Positions 27,199 to 58,795 of a stretch of 64,000 nt of DNA are shown here, piece after piece. Within the stretch, counting starts at the first letter, position 1. Each line of letters starts with the position of its first letter. The stretch is from a virus. A program made the translations under genes and the position numbers. The stretch lies in IMG/VR virus record IMGVR_UViG_3300044981_000152, positions 1 through 64,000 of that record. The stretch is one strand, 5' to 3'. A model generated the notes under the pieces. That model was not told the DNA's origin and made no database searches. It saw only the letters and a list, made by a program, of their open reading frames with translations.

Positions 27199-28116
27199 TC
27201 AGGCTGCGAGGGTGTAGTGCCCCGCGTCCTTGATCAGCGCCGTGGTGATGGTGCCGGTCGGGCAGTTGAAGTACGCAGCGTTGAAGTCAGTCAGCGGCAG
27301 TGAGCAGCCGATGCCCTTCCACTGCTGGTTGGCCTGGTCGTTCTCCTGGAATGCGAGGCCCTGCGTGCCCGCGCCGCCCCACGCCGTGTCGTCGAGGACG
27401 AAGTTCACGCCGCCGTACCCGTGACGGTAGAACGAGGAGTTGTCCAGGCCGATGTTCTGGAACTCGAAGAGCTGGCCTGCTACCTCGACCGGTGCCCACA
27501 GCTGGTACGGGTCGGCGCTGGTCACGGTCGGGGCACCGTGCGCGCCGTCAAGGGTGATCTCGGGGCCGCCGTCCTGCAGCGGGCCGCCGATGAACGTCTC
27601 GCAGGGCCGCAGCACGGTCGCCCACCGCTGGACGCGGTGACCACGGACGGTCCGGTACAGGTCCTGCACCGACACGCAGTAGGCGGTCTGCGCGGGCTTG
27701 GCGCTGTCGTAGGAGGTGAAGATCGGGTCGTTCGCCTCGGCGCCGCCGGGAGTGAAGACGGCCAGGTACTCCCCGAACCCGAACTGGCCGCCGGCGGCCT
27801 CAGGCTCTCCTGCCGCCTGCGCGACGGTGAAGTCCTGCGCGCCGGTGCCGGACGGGTAGTCCTCGGTGTTCACGCCCACGGGCTCGTTCCAGTAGCCGAA
27901 CCCTCCGTTCGTGTTGGGATCAGGGGCCAGGACCGCGAGGGCGAGGTTTCCCTTCGCCGCGTAGGCGAGGGTGGCGCCGCCGCACGCGGTCTTACCCGTG
28001 CAGCTGAGCGATGACGCGGCTGCGGTTCCGGTCGTCGCGATCGCGCTCACCGCCAGCACGCCGCCGACCATGGTCAGCGACGCAGCGGTGGCGAGCACCT
28101 TGCTCTTGATGGACAT
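27199..28116 (-). CDS. Secreted protein with Sec signal peptide (possible lysogenic-conversion gene)
   Basis: This 305-aa protein has GGAAGGGA upstream of ATG 28116. Residues 1-35 are a classical signal peptide: K-S-K, a hydrophobic core (L-T-M-V-G-G-V-L-A-V-S-A-I-A), then T-A-A-A-S as the likely cleavage site. The mature part is Gly/Asp/aromatic-rich with six Cys, compatible with disulphides, and no membrane anchor. It lies alone between a terminator and the helicase/methyltransferase gene, the usual setting of a phage moron expressed from the prophage. No enzyme motif is recognised. Confidence 0.75.
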   Translation of the reverse strand: MSIKSKVLATAASLTMVGGVLAVSAIATTGTAAASSLSCTGKTACGGATLAYAAKGNLALAVLAPDPNTNGGFGYWNEPVGVNTEDYPSGTGAQDFTVAQAAGEPEAAGGQFGFGEYLAVFTPGGAEANDPIFTSYDSAKPAQTAYCVSVQDLYRTVRGHRVQRWATVLRPCETFIGGPLQDGGPEITLDGAHGAPTVTSADPYQLWAPVEVAGQLFEFQNIGLDNSSFYRHGYGGVNFVLDDTAWGGAGTQGLAFQENDQANQQWKGIGCSLPLTDFNAAYFNCPTGTITTALIKDAGHYTLAA

Positions 28117-28211: not shown

Positions 28212-30755
28212 TTACGAGGCCTCGACGTCCGCGGGGGCCTCGTCGAGCAGGTCGAACAGCGCGGGCACCGAGGCCTCACTCGCGGCACCCTGGACGTAGG
28301 CAGCGCCATCGGCGAAGTAGCGGGGGCTCAGCTCGACGCCGACACCGCGGCGCCCGGCCTTGACCGCGCAGTAGGGGACCGTCCCGATGCCCATGAACGG
28401 GTCGAACACCGTCTCGCCCGGCATTGAGTAGCGGACGAGCAGCCGGTCAACGATGTCGAACTGGATCGGGCAAAGATGCTGTTCTTGCCCCTTGCGCTCC
28501 TGGAGCATGTTCAGGGTGCGCATCCGGGCGATATCGGTCCACGCGTCGGGGTGCCAGCTCGGCGGCTGCAGCAGCATGAACCCGGACGGCAGCCGCCCTT
28601 TACGGTCAAGACGCTCGCCGATCGCGACGTGCTGCTCATAGTCGTAGACACTGGCCAGGTAGTGATCGCGGAAACGGCGGAAGATCTGCTGCGCGGGAAG
28701 ATTCTCCAGTTCCTCGGGCAGCAGCGGCCTGTTCCCGCTCGACCGCCAGAAGCCGTGAGCGTCAGTCTGCCAGCGGGCCCGCGAGTACTCGCTCTTGCTC
28801 TTGACCACGGGGACGTCGGCGTAGCCGTCTGAGTTGTCGGTCGGCGGCTTGCGCCATAGCAGCACGTACTCCGGGCATCCGACGCCCATCTTGGAGCCGT
28901 CCTTGCAGTTCTCGGTCCACCCGAGCCGGTAGGTCTGGTTGTTCTCCCGCACGACATCGGTAATGACGGGGATCATCCCGAGCGGCGCGAACCCGTGCTT
29001 GGCGTAGTGGGTGATCGCTTCGGCGTGGAAGTACTGGACCGTCTGGAAGCCGAGCCCCGTCAGGCCCCCCGGAGTGATCCGGTCCTTGACATGGATCGCG
29101 GCCACGCGTCCAGGTGCAAGTACGCGGAACAGCCCGGGAGTCAGGAAGTCCATCTGCTCCCAGAAACGGGAATTGTCCTCGTTATGGCCGAAGTCGTTAT
29201 ATGACGGCGAATACTCATATTGAGTGCTGAATGGTATGGACGTAACAATTAGGTCCACGCTTGCCGTTTCCATCGCGGCGGTTTCGAGTACCGCATCGTT
29301 GTTTACGAGCCGGTAGCTGCCGCCGCTGATCTCGCGTCGTTGTACCCCGATTGACCTGGTAAAACCTCCCGAGAGTGCGTCTCTGGCCAAGCCGCGCTCG
29401 CGGATGATCTCGCCCATCCTGGCGACCAGATCGTCATGCTGCTGCCACTTGCGCTCAAGCTGCGCCCGGATGCCGCGCTCGGCGTCGCTGTAGATGATGT
29501 CGATCCGCACCGGCTCCGTCTGGAGGAAGCGGTGGATCCGGTGGATGGCCTGGATGAAGTCCGCGAACTTGAACCCGATGCCGGTGAAGACCGCGCGGTG
29601 GCAGTAACGCTGGAAGTTGCATCCCGAGCCCGCAATTACCGGCTTGGTCGACAGGACGTTGATTTTCCCGTCGCTGAAATCGATGATCCGCTGCTCGCGC
29701 TCGTCGAGGTCCTGGGAACCCCACACCGCCACGGAATCGGGAACCGCCGCCGCGATCGCGCGCCGCTCGTCCTCCAGGTCGTGCCACAGCAGGAAGTGAT
29801 CATCGGGCGACTCGGCCACGAGCTCCGCCGTCTTCGCAACCCGCGCATCAAGGCTGGTGCGCTTCTCGGCTGCGGCCTCCTGGACGCCGAACGTGGCATC
29901 CCTGAACATGAAACCCTGGCCGTCCTTGTGCTCGCCCGCGCCGAAATACGGCGCCAGCGGCGACGGAACCTCATGCCAGCGGACGTCGAGCGGCGGCAGC
30001 TCGTAGCCCATGTCGTCGTGGCCGAGATCGGAGGGGCGGTTCAGGAAGAGGGCCCACGAGGCGATCCAGGCCCAGAACTCCTCCTCCATATGAGGATGCA
30101 GGGTCAGGTTGTCGGCCTTGGTCGAGTCGCGCTTGAAGAACCGGGTCCGGGCCTGGCCGACGTCCATGATGTCCAGGAATGCCGCGTAGGCGAGCAGCTC
30201 CTCGTACTCGTTCGGGCTCGGCGTGGCCGTGGCCACGAACCGGTAGGCGGAACTACCCTCGTACAGCCGCATCAGCTCGCGGAAAGTCTTTGTGCCGCCG
30301 CGGCCGCGGAGTATCGCCGCCTCGTCGAGCGACACGACGTCGAAGCCGCGCGGGTCCAGCTTCCCCTCGCGCACCGACTCGTAATTCGTGATGTAGATGC
30401 CATCGGCCGAGGCCTCGGCCGATGTGCGGATGAACTGGGTCTCGACGCCGATCAGCCGGGCGTCGCGGGCGAACTCCTGCCGGACGCCGAGCGGGCAGAC
30501 GATCAGGCCGCGGCCGGCGCCGAGCTTCCCGGCGATCAGTCTGAGCGACTCCAGTTGCACCAGGGACTTGCCGAGCCCGAAGGAGGCGAACCAGGCGCGA
30601 CGGCCGCCGCTGACACCCCACAGAACCATGTCCCGCTGATGCGGCTTGAGCGCCGGGTGCACCTCGTCCGGGCCGACGTCGAGGCCTGTAGACGTCGCCA
30701 GCCGGGCCTTGGAGTCCAGGAACGCCCGGTAGCTGAGCGCTGGCCCCTCACCCAT
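28212..30755 (-). CDS. SNF2-like helicase / DNA methyltransferase fusion
   Basis: This 847-aa protein starts at ATG 30755, fixed by AGGAGG 6 nt upstream; the frame runs on into IscB but that part is not protein-like. Residues 58-66 are a Walker A-like G-L-G-K-S with Q following, and 144-147 a D-E-A-A box. Around residues 420-470 is helicase motif VI (Q-A-I-H-R-I-H-R). The C-terminal half is a beta-class amino-methyltransferase: motif IV as T-S-I-P-F near 506 and motif I F-D-P-F-M-G-I-G-T at 784-792. It probably methylates adenine-N6 or cytosine-N4 while translocating. No nuclease domain is seen, so it is a methylation or counter-restriction enzyme rather than a full restriction system. Similar fusions are known in mycobacteriophages. 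Confidence 0.85.
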   Translation of the reverse strand: MGEGPALSYRAFLDSKARLATSTGLDVGPDEVHPALKPHQRDMVLWGVSGGRRAWFASFGLGKSLVQLESLRLIAGKLGAGRGLIVCPLGVRQEFARDARLIGVETQFIRTSAEASADGIYITNYESVREGKLDPRGFDVVSLDEAAILRGRGGTKTFRELMRLYEGSSAYRFVATATPSPNEYEELLAYAAFLDIMDVGQARTRFFKRDSTKADNLTLHPHMEEEFWAWIASWALFLNRPSDLGHDDMGYELPPLDVRWHEVPSPLAPYFGAGEHKDGQGFMFRDATFGVQEAAAEKRTSLDARVAKTAELVAESPDDHFLLWHDLEDERRAIAAAVPDSVAVWGSQDLDEREQRIIDFSDGKINVLSTKPVIAGSGCNFQRYCHRAVFTGIGFKFADFIQAIHRIHRFLQTEPVRIDIIYSDAERGIRAQLERKWQQHDDLVARMGEIIRERGLARDALSGGFTRSIGVQRREISGGSYRLVNNDAVLETAAMETASVDLIVTSIPFSTQYEYSPSYNDFGHNEDNSRFWEQMDFLTPGLFRVLAPGRVAAIHVKDRITPGGLTGLGFQTVQYFHAEAITHYAKHGFAPLGMIPVITDVVRENNQTYRLGWTENCKDGSKMGVGCPEYVLLWRKPPTDNSDGYADVPVVKSKSEYSRARWQTDAHGFWRSSGNRPLLPEELENLPAQQIFRRFRDHYLASVYDYEQHVAIGERLDRKGRLPSGFMLLQPPSWHPDAWTDIARMRTLNMLQERKGQEQHLCPIQFDIVDRLLVRYSMPGETVFDPFMGIGTVPYCAVKAGRRGVGVELSPRYFADGAAYVQGAASEASVPALFDLLDEAPADVEAS

Positions 30756-30809
30756 CCCCCGCCTCCTGCTCGCTGCCGATCCTGACCTGACCGATCCGGT
30801 CCCTGCGGT

Positions 30810-30825
30810 GCTGTCAGCAGACAGC
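30810..30825. repeat. Terminal hairpin of the IscB unit, partly repeated at 32155-32165
   Basis: GCTGTC-AGCA-GACAGC is a perfect 6-bp stem with a tetraloop, spanning the iscB stop. The 11-mer GTCAGCAGACA inside it recurs in inverted orientation at 32155-32165 in the leader of the unit. IS200/IS605 ends carry such subterminal hairpins, so this may mark the element end. Confidence 0.45.
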
Positions 30826-32019
30826 ATGGTCGTATCCGTCTGACCGCTGGACGATCCGGCAATAGCGGTAGCGCACTCCATCTCGAGTGCCATCGCGGGC
30901 GACGATCCGGAAGTCGCCCCTGGTGCGGACAACTACGCGGCCGAGGTGCGACCCAGCGCGCTTGGGGGTACGCGCCCGCACCAGGTCTCCGGTCTGGAAG
31001 CCGTGGACCTGCTTTACCCGCGGCAAGCGCGTTCGCGGGAAGCCGTAAGCGTCGGTGCACGTCCGCTTATGCGTCCCGCGCCCGGTTGCCCTCACTGCGT
31101 ACGTGGCTGCAGTCCCGGCTCCGCGAAGCTGATCCACCTCACCGCAGCACGCGGCATCAAGGGCGTGAGACTTCGGTGTCCCGGTCCGGTGCCTGTTCCA
31201 TTTGGTGCGGGCGCCGGTCCAGCATTCGACGGCGACACCTAGGCTGCGCAGGGCGACGAGACAGGCGTACTTAGTGGAGTTCACCGCTGCCGCATCGCGC
31301 AAAGGAGCCTTGGCCTGCGCGAGGATTTTCGCGAGCCGGGCAGCGTCCGTCACGAATTCCCGTACGGGCATGCTGCCCTTTGCCTGGTTGCACGGGATAC
31401 AGGCCAGGGTGAGATTAGAGACCCGGCTGCTCCCGCCACATGAGCGCGGAACAATATGGTCAATGTTCAGCGGGACGCCTGCCGCATCGCAGTAGGCGCA
31501 CTTCCGGCCCCACTTCTCCAGCAGGTACTCGCGTGCCTCGTACCCGGCAAGTTCCCCCTGCTGGTATTCGGTGCCGCTGATCTCTGGGTTCTGCATGGCC
31601 TGCATGTCAAACCGGACCAGCTCCAGGTCAATCACGCTGACCGGGCACCAGTGCCGGAGTCGCCGCGCCCACGTCTCGACATGCTGAACGCGAGACCGCA
31701 GCGACGGCGCCAGCCAGCCCTTCGGCCTAACGCGGTTGCTGAACCTTGGCGGCCGGTAGCGCAGGTTTGACGACCGCCGCCGCCGCCGGTATCCGGCGCG
31801 CTGCTGCATTCTCTTGTGAATCCCGGCGGACCTATGGGTGATCTCCAGCAGCGCGAGGATGTCGCGGGCGCCGCCGAGTTGGCGGGTAACCGCCATCCCG
31901 GTTGCCTTCGAGCCTGGATCCACGCCGAGGCGAACCGCCCGGCCCGAGCGCAGCAGGGCGCGAGCGCGAGACGGATGGCACGGCATGAGCGGGTTACCCC
32001 GTTTGTCGAGCACGAACAC
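30814..32019 (-). CDS. iscB: IscB RNA-guided nuclease (Cas9 ancestor family)
   Basis: This 401-aa protein starts at GTG 32019 with GAGGGGAG 8 nt upstream. The frame is open to 32235, but those 72 codons coincide with the structured leader RNA. Layout: PLMP domain (residues 3-24, F-V-L-D-K-R-G-N-P-L-M-P-C), RuvC-I (G-V-D-P-G-S, D34), Arg-rich bridge helix (78-110), RuvC-II (E133), HNH with two C-x-x-C pairs (C174/C177, C207/C210) and catalytic D187-H188, RuvC-III (K-S-H-A-L-D-A-A, H285, D288). The C-terminal RNA-binding domain has G-F-P-R and G-F-Q-T-G-D. All catalytic residues appear intact. The family nicks or cuts double-stranded DNA guided by an omegaRNA encoded just upstream. IscB in a phage lysogeny region may act in homing or against rival elements. 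Confidence 0.92.
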   Translation of the reverse strand: MFVLDKRGNPLMPCHPSRARALLRSGRAVRLGVDPGSKATGMAVTRQLGGARDILALLEITHRSAGIHKRMQQRAGYRRRRRSSNLRYRPPRFSNRVRPKGWLAPSLRSRVQHVETWARRLRHWCPVSVIDLELVRFDMQAMQNPEISGTEYQQGELAGYEAREYLLEKWGRKCAYCDAAGVPLNIDHIVPRSCGGSSRVSNLTLACIPCNQAKGSMPVREFVTDAARLAKILAQAKAPLRDAAAVNSTKYACLVALRSLGVAVECWTGARTKWNRHRTGTPKSHALDAACCGEVDQLRGAGTAATYAVRATGRGTHKRTCTDAYGFPRTRLPRVKQVHGFQTGDLVRARTPKRAGSHLGRVVVRTRGDFRIVARDGTRDGVRYRYCRIVQRSDGYDHAVC

Positions 32020-32231
32020 CCGACGGACTCCCCTCGCGGGGGTAACGCCAGCCTTACGGCTGGTCTCCTCTCGGCCATGTTGCGCTCGCGCCCCTCGCGG
32101 GAAGCCGGGTGCCTTTCGGCCGCGCCGCCCCGTTTCGTGCCCACCCCTGGGGTTGTCTGCTGACGGCGCTTCGAGGGTCCGGGGCTGAGGAGGCACCCCG
32201 GAGTCGGTCTTCTGTCCTGCCTGCAACGTAG
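32020..32231 (-). ncRNA. Candidate omegaRNA (HEARO RNA) of IscB
   Basis: The leader directly upstream of iscB, read leftward, contains four short stems closed by GNRA tetraloops: GCC-GAAA-GGC (32111-32120), CCC-GCGA-GGG (32092-32101), CCAGCC-GTAA-GGCTGG (32048-32063) and CCCC-GCGA-GGGG (32030-32041). A CCGGGG/CCCCGG stem lies farther 5'. In IscB systems the omegaRNA lies 5' of the gene and carries its guide at its own 5' end, so the guide should be near 32160-32250. Boundaries are estimates; the RNA may run into the iscB start. Confidence 0.7.
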
Positions 32232-32321
32232 TCACCTCCTAAGCGACTCGGCCTGGTAACTGATGTAAAGGTCACGGGGATCAGTTACGTACTCCGCTAT
32301 CCGGTCGCCAGCCGCGGTCAT
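32232..32321 (-). CDS. Short frame coupled to xis, probably truncated
   Basis: This 29-aa frame has its ATG overlapping the excisionase stop (ATGA). It reads M-T-A-A-G-D-R-I-A-E-Y-V-T-D-P-R-D-L-Y-I and so on, good protein-like sequence, and ends at TGA 32232 inside an AGGAGGTGA. That AGGAGG would serve a following gene, yet only the IscB leader follows. It may be a complete small protein, or the IscB unit may have replaced the original downstream gene. Confidence 0.5.
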   Translation of the reverse strand: MTAAGDRIAEYVTDPRDLYISYQAESLRR

Positions 32322-32554
32322 GCGACCTCCCCTGCGCTCGGGCCGAACTGCTCGGCCTTCAGCCGGTCGACGTACGCCTCGCACTCGCTCATCGGTATGC
32401 GGCGCTCCTGCGGGCCCAGCTCCAGCTTGCGGACCTCGCCGGCGCGCAGGAGCTTGTACAGCTTCGACAAGGACACGCCGATCTTCTTCGCCGCCTCCTT
32501 GTAGGTGAGCATCAGCGGCTCGCCCACGTCGCGTTCGGGGTACTTGTTGCCCAC
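32318..32554 (-). CDS. xis: Excisionase-like helix-turn-helix protein
   Basis: This 78-aa protein has an N-terminal winged-helix/MerR-like HTH: L-T-Y-K-E-A-A-K-K-I-G-V-S-L-S-K-L-Y-K-L at residues 16-35, then R-R-I-P-M-S-E-C-E-A-Y. Proteins of this form (AlpA/Xis-like) bind att DNA and favour excision. It diverges from the integrase gene with 114 bp between them, which carries a perfect palindrome. The pairing with int supports the role. Confidence 0.75.
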   Translation of the reverse strand: MGNKYPERDVGEPLMLTYKEAAKKIGVSLSKLYKLLRAGEVRKLELGPQERRIPMSECEAYVDRLKAEQFGPSAGEVA

Positions 32555-34054: not shown

Positions 34055-34363
34055 GGCCGCGTGAGCCGCTATTGTGCCCACAAATGGTCCCATTGACGCT
34101 CGCAGGAAGTGGCCGGAAGCCTCTGACCTGGGAGCCGCCTATCGGAATCGAACCGATGACCTACGCATTACGAGTTCTTGGAATACCTCTCCATGCTACT
34201 TTCTGCCGCTGCCGACAACTGCATAACCCCTGGTCAGTACAGCCGTTGATAGCGGCTGAGTGCTGCTGGAATTGTCCCCGGAACTGTGCCCACACTGAAT
34301 GCGTTGCTCGCGGCCTATCGAACACCGGGATTGGTGACATTCCGTAGCGGGCACCATGGAGCC
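34055..34363. other. Non-coding att region
   Basis: This stretch holds the tRNA-Thr-derived core and no convincing gene. Integrase arm sites would be expected here, but I see no clear repeat family. Confidence 0.5.
34131..34174 (-). other. attP: Attachment core (attP) identical in form to the 3' part of tRNA-Thr(CGT)
   Basis: Read leftward, the segment starts at a CTCGTAA anticodon loop, continues through the variable loop, a perfect T-arm (ATCGG-TTCGATT-CCGAT) and the acceptor 3' strand AGGCGGC-TCC. The bases 5' of it (AGAA before the loop) cannot pair with TGCG, so the 5' half of the tRNA is absent. Phages use such tRNA 3' ends as crossover cores and restore the host gene on integration. 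Its location next to int, with phage genes on both sides, indicates attP. Confidence 0.8.
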
Positions 34364-49050: not shown

Positions 49051-50922
49051 TCACGCTGCACGCTCCAGGTCCGCACCGGTGATCGCCTCGACCAGCGCCG
49101 AGATGATGACCTCCGCCACCGGCGGCGTAACAGCGTTGCCGTACTGGCGCACCTTCTCGCGCTTGCTGCCGAGCACCTGATAGGCCGCGCCGAACGCCAT
49201 GGCCGCGCCGATCTCGCCGGGCTCCAGCATCCGGAACAGCACGTCCTCGACGCTGACGGCGGCACTGGCGAGCGCCCAGCGGTCGGTTGCGGTGATGGCT
49301 CCCACGGGCTCGGCCGCGGTCCTGGCCACGCCCGTGCCGTAGTACGGCATGAGCAGGTGGGCCAGGTGCTCCCAGGTGATCAGCGACTGATGACCTGCCG
49401 TGGTGAGGGTACGGAACGGCTCGCTGGCCGGGGTGGACATCTGCCCCTGATCACCCCGCGCCGTGTTGTTCCGCATGATCATCGCCAGGCCGGGCGGCGA
49501 GATGAGCGCGTGGTGGGCACCGGAGGCGCTGACCGTGCTTATCGGCCCGGTTACCGGCTGCGCGTCCATGTTGCCGCGCATGACGGCGATGAACGGCGGC
49601 ACGGCAAGCCCGGTCTCGGCTCTGGCCGTCTGGGTCCGCATCGGGTCAGACGCCGGGAGCGCTTCCTTGCCCTCGCGGCCCTCGACGGGGACGAGCATCG
49701 GCGCCTGCGTGACGAGCCCGTGATTGCCCCCGTCCGCGACCACCGTGGCCAGCGGTTCAGTCTCGGCCAGGATTGAGCGGTTGCGCCCGGAGCGCAGCGG
49801 CACCAGGAACGGCGGCGTCACGAGCCCGAACGGCTGGCTTGACGCGGTGAGGGATGCGAGCGGCTCGGTCACGGCCGACGTGCGCAGGTCATCCTGGCCG
49901 CCGCGGTTGACAGTCAGGAACGGCGGGCACGCCAGCGCCTTCGTCGCCGTGGCGGTCTGCGTCGTCAGCGGCTCGTCGACCGGCCATGTCCGGACACCCG
50001 GCCGCCGCTCGAACGTGTTCCCCGCGGCCTCCAGCGTGATCGGCCGCGCGTACCGCTTCAGGCCGGCCTCGATCCGCGCGATCGTCTTCGGCTTCAGCGG
50101 GACCGCACGGTCCCCGATCCGGATTCCGGCGAGGGACCAGTCGATGGCCGCAGCCGCCGGCATCGCCGCAGGCTCCACGACCTGGCTGCATGAGACGCGC
50201 GGGCAGCGGTAGACGTACTGCTGCCGGTAGCGGCCCATGTCGCTGCCCGCGCGCTTCCACCACTGCACCGCGGCCACCGCCTGCTCGCACGACGGGCACC
50301 AGGCCAGCGGGCGCAGCCACCGGTCCCAGTCGGGGTCACGGCCGAGCGATGCCGACCAGTAGGCCAGGTACAGCCGGTCCCTGGACTGCGGCGCGTACGG
50401 CGTGACCAGCGGCCGGGCGTGCATCGAGTTGATCGCGATCAGCCGCGTCCGGTAGCCCAGGTTCGCGATCGAGGCGACCCATTCCCGCCACGCGGTCCAC
50501 GCCCGGACATCGGTAACGTTCTCGACCACCCCGGCCAGCACCGGCCGGCCGCGCAGCTGCATCGCCTCCAGGTACCGGGGTACGTCCCACATCAGGGAGC
50601 GGGACCGGTCGGTGGCCTCATCGGGCAGCGTCTCCCCGAACAAGTCAGGCTGCTTGTCGTAGTCGCGGCGCTGGCCGCGGGCCACGGACCAGGTAGGGCA
50701 CTCCGGCGATGCCCAGAACAGGTCACCGGCGGGGAACTTCTCCACGTCGGCGTCGTGCAGGTCGCCCTGGTAATGCTCGGTGGCGGGGAAGTTGAGCGCG
50801 TGCGACTCGATCGCGCGGGCCCAGTGGTTCGCCGCTAGCCGCGCGGTGACGCCGGGGACCGCTGTCGCGCCCTGGCTGCTGCCGCCGGCGCCGCAGAAGA
50901 AATCGATCAGGGTCAGGCTCAC
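49051..50922 (-). CDS. C5-cytosine DNA methyltransferase with repeated recognition region
   Basis: This 623-aa protein has motif I D-F-F-C-G-A-G-G (7-14), catalytic S-P-E-C-P-T-W-S (C75), E-N-V (motif VI), Q-S-R-D-R (motif VIII) and the C-terminal G-N-A-V-T-P-P-V-A (motif X). It would methylate cytosine-C5. Between VIII and X the protein is much longer than the family norm and holds about six diverged repeats of 40-50 aa, each with (E/D)-P-(L/M)-x-T-x-(T/S)-A and A-P-P-F-(L/I)-x-V. A C-P-S-C ... C-P-R-V-S-C zinc pair lies at about 205-250. Repeated recognition modules may give several target sequences. No restriction partner is adjacent, so it is an orphan, probably anti-restriction, methylase. 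Confidence 0.88.
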   Translation of the reverse strand: MSLTLIDFFCGAGGSSQGATAVPGVTARLAANHWARAIESHALNFPATEHYQGDLHDADVEKFPAGDLFWASPECPTWSVARGQRRDYDKQPDLFGETLPDEATDRSRSLMWDVPRYLEAMQLRGRPVLAGVVENVTDVRAWTAWREWVASIANLGYRTRLIAINSMHARPLVTPYAPQSRDRLYLAYWSASLGRDPDWDRWLRPLAWCPSCEQAVAAVQWWKRAGSDMGRYRQQYVYRCPRVSCSQVVEPAAMPAAAAIDWSLAGIRIGDRAVPLKPKTIARIEAGLKRYARPITLEAAGNTFERRPGVRTWPVDEPLTTQTATATKALACPPFLTVNRGGQDDLRTSAVTEPLASLTASSQPFGLVTPPFLVPLRSGRNRSILAETEPLATVVADGGNHGLVTQAPMLVPVEGREGKEALPASDPMRTQTARAETGLAVPPFIAVMRGNMDAQPVTGPISTVSASGAHHALISPPGLAMIMRNNTARGDQGQMSTPASEPFRTLTTAGHQSLITWEHLAHLLMPYYGTGVARTAAEPVGAITATDRWALASAAVSVEDVLFRMLEPGEIGAAMAFGAAYQVLGSKREKVRQYGNAVTPPVAEVIISALVEAITGADLERAA

Positions 50923-51380: not shown

Positions 51381-51637
51381 TTCGGCGCCGCCTTTCCTGC
51401 CGCCATGGCGGCCGCCGCGGTCTCGGGAATCTCGCACTGCGGGCACGCATCCCACTGGCGCGGCCCCTTCTGGTTGCGCGGGACTCCGGTGCCCGTGCGG
51501 GCGTCGTACTGGCGAAACTTCCAGCCGTCCGCGGCTGCCCTGATCCGCGCCGAGGTGGCATCGGAAGCCAGTTCGGGATGCTCGGCTCCGCAGCCGTCGC
51601 AGACGAGCCGGGAGAAGCCGACCGCACGCACGCTCAC
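51377..51637 (-). CDS. Small zinc-ribbon protein
   Basis: This 86-aa protein starts at GTG 51637, overlapping the ParB stop by GTGA. L-V-C-D-G-C-G-A-E-H-P-E-L (about 11-23) and C-P-Q-C-E-I (about 68-73) form a zinc ribbon of the type used by small phage adaptors. Confidence 0.6.
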   Translation of the reverse strand: MSVRAVGFSRLVCDGCGAEHPELASDATSARIRAAADGWKFRQYDARTGTGVPRNQKGPRQWDACPQCEIPETAAAAMAAGKAAPK

Positions 51638-52395
51638 GACACACTCCGAAGCTCGCCAAGCTCCGCCAGCGCCGCCGCGACGGTCCGCTCGTCGGCGCGG
51701 ATGGCGGTCTCCCAGCATTCGCCGCACGCGAGCTTGCCGACGCGGCGGCGCGCGGAGTGCTCGCGTCCGTTGCACAGTGCCCGCGCCTTGCGGGCCAGCG
51801 GGTGCTGGCTGGTGAAGTGGTCCGGCTCCCACACCGGGCCCATCGCGGGCCGCCCGTCCCGCTTGCGGTCCTTCGCCCGGACCCGCCGCACCGCGGACAC
51901 CCCGTCGGATGCGGACAGGTCACCGCGCCGGATCGCCTCCTGCGACTTCACGTCCAGGTCGAGCAGCGACAGGTAATAGCCGACCGTGGCGTCCGATAGG
52001 CCGATCGACCGGGCGATCCGGATGTTGCTGTAGCCCTTCTTGCGGAGCTTGCCCATCGCCTCGGCCTTGTCCATCGGGTTCAGGTCGGCCCGCTGGCAGT
52101 TCTCCACCAGCATCAGTTCCTCAGGCTCGGCGGCCGGGGAGTCCTTGGCGGCCTGGCGGAACGCGATCGGCACCATCTCCAGCCGCGCCCGCTTCGCCGC
52201 CGCGAACCTGCGGTGCCCCGCGATGATCTGGTAGTGGCCGGGCTTGTCCGGGTGGTGCTCGACGACGACCGGCTGGAGGATGCCGTGCACGGCGACCGAC
52301 GCGGCCAGCCCGGAGATGTCCCCCAGCTCGTCGCGGATGTTGTCCGGGTGCGGGTGGAGCCGGCTGATGTGGGCGTAATGCTTGCTGGCGGTCAT
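51634..52395 (-). CDS. ParB-like protein (N-terminal ParB/Srx domain and HTH)
   Basis: This 253-aa protein has a ParB domain at residues 5-105 (H-P-H-P-D-N-I-R, L-A-A-S-V-A-V-H-G-I-L-Q-P-V-V-V, and G-H-R-R-F-A-A-A). An HTH follows at about 115-140 (Y-S-N-I-R-I-A-R-S-I-G-L-S-D-A-T-V-G-Y-Y). The C-terminus carries C-G-E-C (about 224-227), unusual for plain ParB. No parA or parS repeats are seen nearby. Phage ParB-like proteins can serve as regulators or nucleases, so a transcription role is more likely than segregation. Confidence 0.85.
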   Translation of the reverse strand: MTASKHYAHISRLHPHPDNIRDELGDISGLAASVAVHGILQPVVVEHHPDKPGHYQIIAGHRRFAAAKRARLEMVPIAFRQAAKDSPAAEPEELMLVENCQRADLNPMDKAEAMGKLRKKGYSNIRIARSIGLSDATVGYYLSLLDLDVKSQEAIRRGDLSASDGVSAVRRVRAKDRKRDGRPAMGPVWEPDHFTSQHPLARKARALCNGREHSARRRVGKLACGECWETAIRADERTVAAALAELGELRSVS

Positions 52396-52651: not shown

Positions 52652-53166
52652 GCTGGCACCGCCGCAGCAATGCGCGGGTACTCATCCCAGGTGCGCCCGT
52701 CAAGCTCGCGGCCCCGGACGTTCAGCGACCTGATGTCCTCGGCTAGAGCGACCATGGCCGGGGTCGGGTCATAGTCGGCGGGTGCCCACGGGTAGCTGTC
52801 CTCATCGACTCGCGCGTCCCGCGACTCCTGTCGCGCCTCCTGAAGTTGGAGCGCAAGCTCGGCCTGCTGGCGCTTGATCAGGAGGTAGGGCAGCACGGCC
52901 GCGATAACTTCGGCGGCTCGGTCACCTTCCAGCACCCATTGGTACTGCGTACGGTGATGCGCCCTGTCTTCCTTTGGCTCGTAAGAGCGGACGCTGCCAC
53001 CGTAGATAGATGCAGCGAGGTCGTGCGGTTCCCTCCGAGTCCCAGAGATGCCGACTCGCGGGGCGCAGTAGGTACGTCCCCGGCGAGTGCTGCTGGACGC
53101 GGTGATGTACCCGTCGCTGTCAATGATTCCGGCGAGGTACGCGAGGATCGTAGGCTCAGGCGGCAC
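52648..53166 (-). CDS. LAGLIDADG-type homing endonuclease-like protein
   Basis: This 172-aa protein starts at GTG 53166 with GAGGGAG 7 nt upstream. Residues 9-20 read L-A-G-I-I-D-S-D-G-Y-I, a good LAGLIDADG motif, followed by Y-C-A-P-R-V-G-I-S, a strand pattern and Y-L-L-I-K-R-Q-Q-A-E-L-A-L. One motif per chain implies a homodimer if active. The C-terminal 50 residues are an unrelated acidic extension. The gene overlaps the end of DUF5131 by 11 bp, so it has been incorporated in the operon rather than inserted in an intron. It may act in homing or as a repurposed DNA-binding protein. Confidence 0.75.
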   Translation of the reverse strand: MPPEPTILAYLAGIIDSDGYITASSSTRRGRTYCAPRVGISGTRREPHDLAASIYGGSVRSYEPKEDRAHHRTQYQWVLEGDRAAEVIAAVLPYLLIKRQQAELALQLQEARQESRDARVDEDSYPWAPADYDPTPAMVALAEDIRSLNVRGRELDGRTWDEYPRIAAAVPA

Positions 53167-54142
53167 GGGGGAACTCCCTCGGGAAAGGCTCGGGCCATTC
53201 GGCGGCGTTGCCGCCTTTCCGGTCGGCGCAGCCCCATTCGCGGGCGAGTGCAGCGCCGGCCTGCTTGAACAGGAACGGGATGCGGGCGTCCTGGCACTGA
53301 TCCCGCAGCGACCGTGCCCACTCGGGAAGCATCGGCCGCGCACCCGGGCCCGACTCGCCGCCAGCGACAACCCATGACACCGAGCCGGGGCAGGCCGCGT
53401 AGATCTCGCCGGCCGCCGTCTTCACGTCGCCGTAGAGCGCATCGACGAAGACGTTGCCCCGGATCTGGAGGTTGCGGAGGTCGATCGCGCCGAGCAGCGG
53501 CTCCGCGGAAACCCACAGCACGCCGGCGGCGGGCTGGCAGGACAGCAGCGCGTGCACCCGGATCGCCGCCCAGTGCTGATCCTCAGCCGAGACGCCCAGG
53601 CACAGGTTCGGGATCGGCCACGGCGCCTGCTGGCCAAAGTGGGTGTCGATGTAGTCGGCCCACGCCCGGCCGCCGCGCCCGAGGTCGGCGGCCAGCTGGT
53701 CCCAGCGGGCCTCGTACATGGCCCGGAACTCCGGCGAGGTCAGCAGCGAGCGCATCCGGCCGTGCCGCTTCGTCAGGAGCTGGAAGGTGTGCCACCGCGC
53801 CATGGCCATGACGGCGAACACCTCGGCGATGAACTGATCCGGCACGTCCTCGTAGAACAGGTCCGCGAGGCTGTTGACGAACACCTTGCGCGGCTTGCGC
53901 CAGTGCAGCGGCTGCTCTAGGCGTTCAGGCAGGAGGTTGACGCGGCCGGTCCAGTCGGCCCGGCCAGGGGTCTGCACGGTCAGGCCATCGAACGCGGCGG
54001 CTACCTTCGGGTTCGGGTTCCCGGCCCGGATGCGCGCCTGGATGATCGCGTAACAGTGATCACATCCCGGCGACACGCGGGCACAGCCGAGCACGGGGTT
54101 CCAGCTCGCGTCGCTCCACTCGATCGCGGTGTTGTCGCTCAT
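53156..54142 (-). CDS. DUF5131 family protein (phage Gp37/Gp68)
   Basis: This 328-aa protein has I-E-W-S-D-A-S-W-N-P-V-L-G-C (8-21) followed by C-D-H-C-Y-A (27-32), the Cys signature of the Gp37/Gp68 family, then F-V-N-S-L-A-D-L-F-Y (about 87-96) and V-A-G-G-E-S-G-P-G-A-R-P-M-L (about 263-276). The family is common in phages and plasmids. Three clustered Cys suggest an Fe-S or radical-SAM-like chemistry that has not been settled. Coupled in the operon. Confidence 0.88.
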   Translation of the reverse strand: MSDNTAIEWSDASWNPVLGCARVSPGCDHCYAIIQARIRAGNPNPKVAAAFDGLTVQTPGRADWTGRVNLLPERLEQPLHWRKPRKVFVNSLADLFYEDVPDQFIAEVFAVMAMARWHTFQLLTKRHGRMRSLLTSPEFRAMYEARWDQLAADLGRGGRAWADYIDTHFGQQAPWPIPNLCLGVSAEDQHWAAIRVHALLSCQPAAGVLWVSAEPLLGAIDLRNLQIRGNVFVDALYGDVKTAAGEIYAACPGSVSWVVAGGESGPGARPMLPEWARSLRDQCQDARIPFLFKQAGAALAREWGCADRKGGNAAEWPEPFPREFPRAA

Positions 54143-56120: not shown

Positions 56121-56539
56121 GAGCCGTACCCCTCGATCGCGTTCCGCTCGGCCCGCTGCGTGGCGCCGATGCTCCGGCAGGTGTCCCAGTCGTCCTTCAG
56201 CAGGCGGAGCACTTCCTTCGCCGCGTCCAGCTCAGCCTTAAGCGCGTCGGCGGCGAACACAGCCCCCGCCGCGGCGAGGCGCGACGCCTGGTCTCGCTGC
56301 TGCTGCGGCCCGTCGGCGGACATGAACTCCTCGGCCCGGACGATCGTGGCGACCTTGACCGCCTCGGCGACATCGGTCTGGAGCTGCCGGATCTCCTCGA
56401 TCTTGTCCCGTCGCATCCGCTGGATCGCGACCATCACCTGGGCGATCTCGCGCGGGCCCAGGTCTTCCGCCTGCCGCCCGCGCGGATGCTCGCCGGGCGA
56501 CAGGATGCGCTCGATCGCGACGGCTTCCAGGGTGGTCAC
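56117..56539 (-). CDS. Helical hypothetical protein near recT
   Basis: This 140-aa protein is almost entirely helical (I-A-Q-V-M-V-A-I-Q-R-M-R-R-D-K-I-E-E-I-R-Q-L and A-A-D-A-L-K-A-E-L-D-A-A-K-E), so a coiled coil is likely. It overlaps the RecT end by 4 bp. Such proteins accompany RecT/exonuclease pairs in actinophages, but the role is unknown. Confidence 0.65.
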   Translation of the reverse strand: MTTLEAVAIERILSPGEHPRGRQAEDLGPREIAQVMVAIQRMRRDKIEEIRQLQTDVAEAVKVATIVRAEEFMSADGPQQQRDQASRLAAAGAVFAADALKAELDAAKEVLRLLKDDWDTCRSIGATQRAERNAIEGYGS

Positions 56540-57462
56540 GCGGGCTCGCTCCCCGGCACGAACCCCTCCGGCCAGCCGTCCTCCGGGGTGCTCCTGGCGG
56601 GGTTGCCGAGGTCTTCATCCGCTGCGTCATCATCAGCGACCTGGCCGGGCAGCACGCGGGGCGGCCGCTCGGTCACTTCCCCGGCGTTCGCGGTCGGCGT
56701 GAGGTCGACCCGGATGCCGTTGTCCGCCTGCATCGCGGTGACCATCTCGGCGGACTTCGGGAGCAGCGCGAAGTTCCGCAGGATCATGGTCTTCTTCCCC
56801 ATGGGCAGGAAGTGGTCGGTCCAGGGGCCGACGATCTTCCCGTTCTGGTTCCGCGGCGCATGCCTGTCCCGGTGCTGCTGCATCTCCTCAACTGACCAGG
56901 GGTCGGTGAGGGAGTAGCCGCCGCCGATGACCCGGGCGACCGAGTAGAAGCACACCGGATCACCGTGCAGGCCGCGGTAGGAGGGCTTGTGCAGGAGCTT
57001 GTCGCCGTCCTCGTGGAACTCGATGTCGAACTCTTCGCCCTCGTAGACGACCCGCGACGCGATCCCGGCGAGCTTGCCCGACCGGTAGCCGAGCTCGATG
57101 TACCCCTTGTAGCCGACGACGAGCTGGGCGCGATGCCGGCGCTGGGCGTTGTCCCAGTACGGAAGCGGCCACGCGTGCCCGAGACTGGCCACGCCGGGCC
57201 GCAGGTCAAGCTGGGCGCACGTCATCAGCGACCCGAGGAAGCTTTCCGGGTCGCACTTGTCGAGGTTCTTGATGGTCCGCAGGCACGTCATCGCGTCGCG
57301 GACAAGCTGGGTCGCCTCGCGGCCCTTCGGCATGGCCGCCTGGAATTCCGGGGTCATCCGCTCAAGCTGCTGCGCGAGCGTCCTGACCTGCTCGGGCTCG
57401 GAGCCGTTCCCGTTGCTGCCGTTGCGCTGGGCTGCTGCCCGCGCGGCTAGTTCTCGTCCCAT
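56536..57462 (-). CDS. recT: RecT-like single-strand annealing protein
   Basis: This 308-aa protein has the RecT core from about residue 50 to 230: C-A-Q-L-D-L-R-P-G, L-G-H-A-W-P-L-P-Y, V-V-G-Y-K-G-Y-I-E-L-G-Y-R-S-G (about 116-130), V-V-Y-E-G-E-E-F and M-G-K-K-T-M-I-L-R-N-F. The C-terminus is acidic and disordered. It anneals single strands during recombination-dependent replication, with the YqaJ exonuclease encoded 3 bp upstream. Confidence 0.93.
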   Translation of the reverse strand: MGRELAARAAAQRNGSNGNGSEPEQVRTLAQQLERMTPEFQAAMPKGREATQLVRDAMTCLRTIKNLDKCDPESFLGSLMTCAQLDLRPGVASLGHAWPLPYWDNAQRRHRAQLVVGYKGYIELGYRSGKLAGIASRVVYEGEEFDIEFHEDGDKLLHKPSYRGLHGDPVCFYSVARVIGGGYSLTDPWSVEEMQQHRDRHAPRNQNGKIVGPWTDHFLPMGKKTMILRNFALLPKSAEMVTAMQADNGIRVDLTPTANAGEVTERPPRVLPGQVADDDAADEDLGNPARSTPEDGWPEGFVPGSEPA

Positions 57463-57464
57463 GG

Positions 57465-58442
57465 TTACGCATCCCCCTTGAGCGTGACGTTGAACTGGCG
57501 GAATCCCTTGTCCGTGACGACCTCAGCGGCCACGTCGGGATACTTCTCGCGCAGGACCGCGATTCCTTCCTTCGGGACGCTGGTCTTGCTGCGGTTCGCC
57601 CACCGGGCGACGGTCTCGCCCTCGTACGTGGCCGTCCCGGCGTCGCCCATGGCGGCGGTGATGAGCGCCTTGATCTCGTTCTTCCGGCCCTTGGCGGCGC
57701 TCTCGTTGGCGAGCTCCTTGCGGTACTCGCGCAGCAGGGCCACGTCGGCGGCGGACAATTCCGCCGTCTTGCCGTCGTCCGCCTCGGGGTACAGGCGCGC
57801 GATCAGGTCGGCCGACGCGCGGCCTTCGAGGGCGGGCGGGGTGCGGGCCTCGACCAGGTGCCAGAACTCTTCCTCGCACGCGGTCAGGTCGGCGATGAAC
57901 GCCTCGTCCCGCTCGATCCGGCGGATGACCGGGGGCTGCCCGCCGACCTGCGCGGCCAGCCATGCGTGCGGCAGGCCGGTGACCGCCATGGCGTGCTGGG
58001 CCTGCGCCTCGGCGCCGTCGGCGACGATCTCGCCCTCGCCGTCTTCCCACTCGCCGCGGCGGTGGTAGTTCGTGTTCTTGATCTCCAGGATGCCGCCGTC
58101 GGCCGTGAGCCGGTCGACGGACACCCGCTGCCACGTCCGCTCGGCGTGCTGCATGAGCCCGCAGCGGCGGGCGCTGACGCCGGTCTTGAACGTGAACCAC
58201 TCGGCGATGGGCCCCTCGACGTAGTTGCCCCAGGCCATGCCGTCGGTCTGCTCGCGCTCACCCCGGTCGTCGCCGGTCTTGTCGAGGTAGACCTCCATGC
58301 GGGTCTTCCACGGGTCCAGGCCCAGGACCGCGAGGGCGTCGCTGCCGCCGATGCCGTCCCGCCGCAGCCTCAGCCACTCCTCGCGGGGCGTGTCGTAGCG
58401 GGCCACCAGGATGCCGGCCGGCGTGACCTTGCGCCCGGTCAT
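57465..58442 (-). CDS. YqaJ-type recombinase exonuclease
   Basis: This 325-aa protein starts at ATG 58442. Core motifs: R-R-D-G-I-G-G-S-D-A-L-A-V-L-G (about 28-42), N-Y-V-E-G-P-I-A (E about 79), V-S-V-D-R-L (D about 113) and I-L-E-I-K-N-T (E-x-K about 123-125), the lambda-exonuclease metal site. A later Q-H-A-M-A-V-T-G region completes the fold. It degrades double-stranded ends 5'-3' to feed RecT. Confidence 0.9.
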   Translation of the reverse strand: MTGRKVTPAGILVARYDTPREEWLRLRRDGIGGSDALAVLGLDPWKTRMEVYLDKTGDDRGEREQTDGMAWGNYVEGPIAEWFTFKTGVSARRCGLMQHAERTWQRVSVDRLTADGGILEIKNTNYHRRGEWEDGEGEIVADGAEAQAQHAMAVTGLPHAWLAAQVGGQPPVIRRIERDEAFIADLTACEEEFWHLVEARTPPALEGRASADLIARLYPEADDGKTAELSAADVALLREYRKELANESAAKGRKNEIKALITAAMGDAGTATYEGETVARWANRSKTSVPKEGIAVLREKYPDVAAEVVTDKGFRQFNVTLKGDA

Positions 58443-58795
58443 GACGCACCGCCTGCGGCTGCCCGACCCTCGGCCGACGTGAGCACCTCGGCCAGGGGGG
58501 ATCTGCCCGCGGTGACGTACGCCGGGTCGATCTCGCGGGTCACGAACTCGGCGAAGCGGTCCGCGTCGTCCTTGCCGTCCACGATCCAGGCCGCGACCAC
58601 GCGCTGGAGCTTGGCGGCCTCGGCGTACCCGATCTGCCACGCTTCCTCGGCCACGTGGCGGGCCATGACGGCAGGGTCGGGATGGGTGCCGCGTTCCACG
58701 GCGAGGTCCAGCTGGAAACTCGCCGGGCCAGTGTGCGAGGTCTCGTCGCCGGGCCGCGCGCCGCCGGTCAGGATCACGACGTACTGGCCGCTCAT
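58439..58795 (-). CDS. Small hypothetical recombination-region protein
   Basis: This 118-aa protein starts at ATG 58795 and ends in an overlap with the exonuclease start. Q-Y-V-V-I-L-T-G-G begins a beta strand. E-E-A-W-Q-I-G-Y-A-E-A-A-K-L-Q and A-W-I-V-D-G-K-D-D-A-D-R-F follow. Likely a soluble domain; no known family. Confidence 0.6.
   Translation of the reverse strand: MSGQYVVILTGGARPGDETSHTGPASFQLDLAVERGTHPDPAVMARHVAEEAWQIGYAEAAKLQRVVAAWIVDGKDDADRFAEFVTREIDPAYVTAGRSPLAEVLTSAEGRAAAGGAS

What the first reader, a model, noticed from the sequence alone, without database searches (positions are those of the whole stretch)
30814..32231. IscB RNA-guided nuclease with omegaRNA in a temperate actinophage
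The gene encodes all IscB landmarks (PLMP, RuvC-I D34, bridge helix, RuvC-II, HNH D187-H188 with two C-x-x-C, RuvC-III H285/D288, G-F-Q-T-G-D C-terminus) with no visible lesion. A leader with four GNRA-capped hairpins precedes it. IscB is usually a passenger of IS200/IS605 elements; here it sits, without tnpA, between the excisionase and a helicase/methyltransferase gene. It may have been adopted for homing, immunity against rival phages, or att-site competition.
Basis: partly seen in the sequence, partly recalled or inferred. Interest (0 to 1): 0.92.

Follow-up and report, generated by a model that had tools for sequence, protein, structure and literature searches.

The report
Phage-borne IscB element with clipped N-terminus
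A bacterial virus of actinobacteria carries a known kind of small RNA-guided DNA-cutting enzyme (IscB, a relative of the ancestor of Cas9) with its guide RNA, wedged in front of one of its own genes; the enzyme has lost a piece that all 113 relatives checked over that stretch still have, so it may no longer work, and the find is ordinary apart from that missing piece.

Summary
The gene is a real IscB (NCBIfam guided_IscB, 385 bits) and the leader is a real omegaRNA (Rfam HEARO, E=5e-7). Both lie in a temperate actinophage between the excisionase and a helicase/methyltransferase gene. Missed: the protein lacks 24 residues, the second half of the N-terminal PLMP domain, which 113 of 113 relatives covering that stretch keep. 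The right-end hairpin that most relatives have is also absent. Overrated: lack of tnpA and a phage location are both usual for IscB. Comparing chromosomal copies with their empty sites shows how these elements sit: left flank = guide, right flank = an ATGA motif, often a gene's start codon. The phage element fits (1,533 bp, 30756-32288): it separates a Shine-Dalgarno (GCGGAG) from the helicase start codon, so its guide, CCGGATAGCGGAGTAC, should target the IscB-free version of that gene. Best reading: an RNA-guided homing passenger, long under selection, now probably weakened and immobile. No empty-site phage was found, and cleavage and RNA expression are untested. New member of a known kind; interest modest.

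The parts
30756..32288 (-). inferred whole element (1,533 bp): left end GTAACTGATCC at 32288, right limit just before the helicase start codon ATG at 30755
   Evidence: left end as in actinobacterial copies (GTAACGGGATCC), whose limits were fixed by empty sites in sister species; the window limits are by analogy, no empty-site phage found
32289..32304 (-). predicted 16-nt guide CCGGATAGCGGAGTAC (left flank of the insertion, contains Shine-Dalgarno-like GCGGAG)
   Evidence: directly 5' of HEARO position 1; guide length from PMC9640706; geometry as in relatives
32060..32288 (-). omegaRNA (HEARO) scaffold; Rfam hit 32104-32288, conserved 3' motif AACATGGCCGAG lies further on, within 32060-32104
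   Evidence: Rfam RF02033 43.2 bits E=4.7e-7; alignment with 20 relatives keeps the conserved motifs, 41 of 49 consensus pairs formed
32020..32062 (-). two terminal GNRA hairpins (CCAGCC-GTAA-GGCTGG, CCCC-GCGA-GGGG), the second carrying the iscB Shine-Dalgarno
   Evidence: sequence, hairpins listed; same layout described for IsrB in PMC9581776
30814..32019 (-). iscB, 401 aa, GTG start; RuvC-I D34, bridge helix, RuvC-II E133, HNH D187-H188, RuvC-III H285/D288, GFQTGD
   Evidence: NF040563 385.5 bits, PF14239 and HNH, alignments, PDB IscB/IsrB matches
31935..31936 (-). junction of the in-frame 24-codon (72-nt) deletion in the PLMP domain, between residues A28 and V29
   Evidence: 113 of 113 relatives covering the stretch keep the segment; AlphaFold confidence of the remnant 55-73 against 89-96 in an intact relative
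30756..30813 (-). right-end region: lacks the CCTCCC-hairpin-GGTTTCC motif of most relatives; carries AGGAGG that can serve the helicase start
28212..30755 (-). helicase / N4-N6 DNA methyltransferase gene whose start codon abuts the element
   Evidence: PF01555, relatives begin at about the same N-terminus
32232..32321 (-). 29-aa ORF that starts at the xis stop codon (ATGA), runs across the guide and ends in the omegaRNA; probably a by-product of the insertion
   Evidence: sequence
32318..32554 (-). excisionase (HTH), likely start 32512
   Evidence: PHROG 66 excisionase 3e-8; 56% identical to the gene next to a related integrase in L125/L126
32669..34054 (+). tyrosine integrase
   Evidence: PF00589, 62% identical relatives L124-L126
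34123..34177 (.). probable attP core, 55 bp, 98% identical to L124-L126 downstream of their integrase

Best explanation
An IscB-omegaRNA element of the OMEGA/HEARO kind jumped or was copied into an actinophage, between the Shine-Dalgarno and the start codon of the helicase/methyltransferase gene. Its omegaRNA takes its guide from the left flank, so the ribonucleoprotein should cut the same gene in phage copies that lack the element (guide CCGGATAGCGGAGTAC followed by ATGG), and repair from the occupied copy would convert them: homing, or a gene drive between co-infecting or resident phages. The occupied site is spared because the guide is followed by the element, not by the motif. The right end supplies a new Shine-Dalgarno, so the helicase gene can still be translated. 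The enzyme was under selection for most of its history, but it has lost half of the PLMP domain that contacts the RuvC domain and the 3' hairpins of the RNA, and its right end lacks the usual motif; it is therefore most likely impaired now and no longer mobile as a transposon. Shown: the parts, the deletion, the geometry in relatives. Inferred: cleavage, homing, loss of activity.
For: IscB identity. OmegaRNA identity: Rfam, conserved motifs in an alignment with 20 relatives, 43 of 52 consensus pairs with changes on both sides. Geometry: in the Nocardiopsis metallicus copy L018 the rejoined flanks restore an aldehyde dehydrogenase frame GITPWNYPL|MMAVWK; sister species carry that site and the L016 site uninterrupted at 90-98% identity, while the two bearers match in two pieces broken exactly at the element limits. 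Most of the relatives inspected have ATGA directly after the right end; the window has ATGG at the equivalent place and a Shine-Dalgarno GCGGAG at the end of the left flank. Past selection: end branch 0.7 changes per site, yet an open frame and 90 of 100 conserved positions kept; 6 stops expected without selection, 1 of 300 simulations had none. Impairment: PLMP segment missing against 113 of 113 relatives, remnant poorly modelled (versus 69), lowest HEARO score and lowest share of consensus pairs, right-end motif absent. PLMP truncation abolished nicking in IsrB (PMC9581776); the PLMP-motif domain is described as important for RNP assembly (PMC12991159).
Against: No empty-site phage was found, so the guide's target in nature and the motif ATGG are inferred. 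The motif differs from the ATGA of relatives. The closest relative is only 59% identical, so it is not known whether the deletion is one individual's loss or a trait of a lineage. A 24-aa loss could be tolerated.
Confidence: 0.66

Rival explanations
1. A fully working homing element: the shortened PLMP domain is tolerated, perhaps compensated by the altered omegaRNA, and the phage spreads it by cutting IscB-free alleles, helped by its own RecE/RecT recombination.
For: Catalytic residues, zinc cysteines, bridge helix and RNA core kept; long history under selection; RecE- and RecT-like genes in the same phage.
Against: PLMP segment kept by all relatives checked; PLMP truncation abolished nicking in IsrB (PMC9581776); remnant modelled poorly; right-end motif missing.
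Confidence: 0.18
2. Assembly or sequencing artefact: the 72-nt deletion is not in the real phage, and the element is an ordinary intact IscB.
For: A single IMG/VR virus record with one copy, no second record to check.
Against: The loss is exactly in frame and the gene also departs from relatives elsewhere, as do the omegaRNA and the right end.
Confidence: 0.08
3. Domesticated by the phage for superinfection immunity or competition with other phages.
For: Temperate phage, IscB-omegaRNA on the same strand as xis and the helicase gene; no right-end motif, hence probably fixed.
Against: The only exact match of the guide in its own record is its own locus, and viral matches are chance hits; the guide is simply the flanking sequence, as expected for elements of this kind.
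Confidence: 0.05
4. Exapted as an RNA-guided regulator: a poorly cutting complex binds the helicase start region of other copies and tunes expression.
For: The guide covers the Shine-Dalgarno of the helicase gene in the inferred empty allele; probable loss of activity without loss of the frame.
Against: All catalytic residues are kept, unlike nuclease-dead regulators derived from TnpB (own knowledge); the occupied allele lacks the motif next to the guide, so it would not regulate itself.
Confidence: 0.03

Closest known systems
IscB-omegaRNA / HEARO elements of Actinomycetota (e.g. Streptosporangiales L007, Nocardiopsis L016-L018, Streptosporangium L011)
   Same: same protein family, same omegaRNA motifs, same left end GTAAC, same kind of place between a Shine-Dalgarno and a start codon, no Y1 transposase nearby; the window protein branches first in this clade with 98% SH-aLRT
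   Different: 24-aa PLMP deletion, no right-end hairpin motif, ATGG instead of ATGA, shorter guide-adaptor hairpin, carried by a phage
Phage-borne HEARO/IscB reported in PMC9755519, and PHROG 2214
   Same: IscB in viral genomes, without TnpA
   Different: this one is truncated in the PLMP domain
OgeuIscB (PDB 7XHT, 7UTN, 8CSZ) and TbaIscB (9K30), solved IscB-omegaRNA-DNA complexes
   Same: RuvC, bridge helix, HNH, WED/TI order
   Different: they have the whole PLMP domain; 20% identity or less by fold alignment
IsrB (DtIsrB, PDB 8DMB)
   Same: PLMP, RuvC, omegaRNA architecture; target-adjacent motif NTGA (PMC9581776) resembles ATGA
   Different: IsrB lacks HNH; the window protein has it
TnpB gene drive of IS200/IS605 (PMC11870625)
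   Same: guide recorded from the insertion flank, cutting of element-free copies
   Different: TnpB/Cas12 lineage, shown in plasmids, not in this phage

Membership tests
IscB (RNA-guided OMEGA nuclease) | split RuvC with bridge helix and inserted HNH, catalytic residues kept | tested here: met
   D34, E133, H188, H285, D288
IscB (RNA-guided OMEGA nuclease) | complete N-terminal PLMP domain | tested here: not met
   PLMP motif and helix kept, following 24 aa missing; a truncated member by descent, not a different family
IscB (RNA-guided OMEGA nuclease) | curated family score | tested here: met
   NF040563 385.5 bits against cutoff 175
IscB (RNA-guided OMEGA nuclease) | RNA-guided cleavage of DNA next to a target-adjacent motif | not testable with these tools
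   needs purified complex
HEARO / omegaRNA (RF02033) | covariance-model match directly upstream of the gene | tested here: inconclusive
   43.2 bits, E=4.7e-7, whole model 1-211, but under the gathering score 83; 11 of 20 relatives are under it too, all above 50
HEARO / omegaRNA (RF02033) | conserved core motifs and pairing shared with IscB relatives | tested here: met
   conserved motifs kept; 41 of 49 consensus pairs
IscB mobile element of this clade | left end GTAAC at HEARO position 1 | tested here: met
   against window 32288
IscB mobile element of this clade | right-end hairpin CCTCCC...GG(T)TTCC followed by ATGA | tested here: not met
   absent in 30756-30813, ATGG follows
IS200/IS605 insertion sequence | Y1 transposase TnpA | tested here: not met
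   none among the neighbouring ORFs scanned; also none beside full-length relatives in 18 genomes
Homing endonuclease-like element | empty allele in sister genomes at exactly the inferred site | tested here: inconclusive
   met for two relatives; no sister phage found for the window

The most novel reading that the evidence does not exclude
A natural IscB that works with half a PLMP domain and a compact omegaRNA, fixed in a phage as an RNA-guided homing or exclusion system without transposon ends.
Probability: 0.13. Interest if true: 0.6.

Novelty: new member of a known kind. Interest (0 to 1): 0.36.

Why it matters
If active, the protein would show that a domain thought essential can be halved, useful for miniature editors, and would be a concrete case of RNA-guided homing in a phage with a named target (the helicase/methyltransferase start). 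If inactive, it is a snapshot of decay of an OMEGA element in a phage. The side result, that these elements settle in front of an ATGA, often between a Shine-Dalgarno and a start codon, with the flank as guide, is shown for two relatives by their empty sites and makes targets predictable from sequence.

Tried and rejected
Empty-site search: guide 17-mer in viral contigs gave 4 chance hits; guide+ATG 16-mer gave 8 hits without the context (one of these contigs, L276, also carries a remote helicase relative); the xis protein found no relative in viral contigs by the exact-peptide scan; integrase relatives L124-L126 have xis but other genes after it; the phage collection had nothing near. A tblastn hint that viral copy L203 shares the deletion was an alignment artefact: its translation has the segment. 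Folding the leader alone gave no significance against shuffles (z=0.19), so the RNA case rests on covariance, not on energy. Relatives of the window genome could not be drawn because it is a virus record. The idea that the 29-aa ORF is the old N-terminus of the helicase is in frame but unproven; many relatives of the helicase start where the window one does.

Full report
What is there. The window is 64 kb of a 99-kb virus record. The reading frame 30814-32235 (-) contains IscB. NCBIfam's guided_IscB model scores 385.5 bits (cutoff 175) and Pfam's RRXRR and HNH families match. The frame is longer than the gene: its first 72 codons lie in the omegaRNA, and the likely start is the GTG at 32019, just after a GAGGGGAG Shine-Dalgarno, giving 401 aa. 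By sequence and by fold the closest solved structures are IscB and IsrB complexes.

The lesion. Against the full-length chromosomal and viral relatives aligned first, the window protein runs ...LLRSGRA-VRLGVDPGSK..., where all others carry about 24 more residues, such as RVHRVVPFVIRLTDRLARNSRFQP. Of 79 further viral copies that cover the stretch, all have the segment; the one apparent exception, L203, was an alignment artefact. That makes 113 of 113. In 18 genomes with several copies each, the matches likewise break around residue 28. AlphaFold models an intact relative's PLMP domain at 89-96 pLDDT, but the window's remnant at 55-73, with a well-ordered RuvC core. The missing piece holds two strands of the domain. 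The PLMP domain contacts RuvC and the terminal hairpins of the RNA, and truncating it abolished nicking by IsrB (PMC9581776; PMC9640706); the PLMP-motif domain is described as important for RNP assembly (PMC12991159). 'No visible lesion' is therefore wrong, although loss of function is an inference.

The RNA. Rfam's HEARO model matches 32104-32288 (-) end to end at 43.2 bits, E=4.7e-7, below the gathering score. Twenty relatives scored with the same model give 50.5-121.4 bits, 11 of them also below gathering, so the window's is a true but weak member. In an alignment with them the window keeps the conserved motifs, including AACATGGCCGAG beyond the end of the Rfam hit, and 41 of 49 consensus pairs; the 5' adaptor hairpin is short and the central helix has mismatches. 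The four GNRA hairpins are real. Folding energy alone says nothing.

Where the element begins and ends. Pairs of actinobacterial copies stay alike from GTAAC/GTAAAGGGATCC, which is HEARO position 1, to a hairpin CCTCCC-GGCCTGAAGGCC-GGGGTTTCC and then ATGA. In Nocardiopsis metallicus the element splits an aldehyde dehydrogenase gene, and rejoining the flanks restores GITPWNYPL|MMAVWK. Searching the genus with the rejoined flanks found the uninterrupted site in sister species at about 89-92%, and a second site (copy L016) at up to 98%; in the two bearers the same queries matched in two pieces, broken at 42/42 and 45/46. So the left flank, which is the guide, is followed directly by ATGA in the empty site; in several copies the ATG is a start codon and the left flank holds its Shine-Dalgarno. 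The window has the same layout...GATAGCGGAGTAC | 1,533 bp | ATGGGTGAGG..., with GCGGAG in the left flank and the helicase start codon on the right. Two differences: ATGG for ATGA, and no right-end hairpin motif.

How it probably works. The guide CCGGATAGCGGAGTAC would direct cutting of the helicase/methyltransferase gene in copies without the element; repair against an occupied copy would install it. The element's own site is spared since the guide is followed by GTAACTGA. The new AGGAGG before the ATG keeps the helicase gene translatable. RecE- and RecT-like genes in the same phage could do the repair. All of this is inference from anatomy and from related OMEGA systems (TnpB gene drive, PMC11870625). 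In its own 99-kb record the guide matches elsewhere only with two or more mismatches.

Working or decaying. The protein branches first in the actinobacterial IscB clade (98% SH-aLRT) on an end branch of 0.7 changes per site, three times the median. It has lost 10 of 100 conserved positions, level with the most divergent relative; three are due to the deletion. Without selection about six stop codons would be expected over such a branch, and 1 of 300 simulations had none. So it was under selection for most of its history. Third-position G+C is 0.78 against 0.85 in the helicase and 0.95 in the integrase, as for a newcomer. My reading is recent impairment of a once active element; a tolerated deletion is the main rival.

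Novelty. IscB in phages and without TnpA is known: 'only a few' HEARO are near TnpA and over 16% of fragments are viral (PMC9755519); PHROG 2214 is a phage family of this protein; one scan found 124 viral contigs with relatives; Y1 transposases occur in 13 of the 18 genomes but none near a full-length IscB copy. What is special here is the halved PLMP domain, whose function cannot be settled by computation.

Noticed in passing
L018:5652-7338 and sister genomes L261-L264: An IscB element interrupts an aldehyde dehydrogenase gene in Nocardiopsis metallicus; sister species have the uninterrupted site. Direct demonstration of site and flanking motif ATGA for this clade.
   Followed up: yes
relatives L004-L040, right ends: IscB elements of this clade often sit exactly between a Shine-Dalgarno and an ATGA start codon, and their right end supplies a new Shine-Dalgarno: nearly harmless insertions.
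   Followed up: partly
34123-34177: 55 bp 98% identical to sequence after a 62% identical integrase in L124-L126; probable attP core, by its position perhaps the 3' end of a tRNA gene (not tested).
   Followed up: partly
28212-30755: Helicase fused to N4/N6 DNA methyltransferase, relatives of up to about 60% identity in over 80 viral contigs and 314 phage records of very different hosts (Mycobacterium, Pseudomonas, Flavobacterium).
   Followed up: partly
49051-50922, 51634-52395, 53156-54142, 56536-58640: C5 cytosine methyltransferase, ParB-like protein, DUF5131 protein, RecT and RecE homologues in the same phage.
   Followed up: no
27199-28116: Protein of 305 aa with a signal-peptide-like start and no Pfam match, between the lysis side and the helicase gene.
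   Followed up: no
L033, L037, L039: Three Streptomyces IscB copies have a different right end (AAAGGAGGTGATC..ATGTATG) from the rest of the clade.
   Followed up: no
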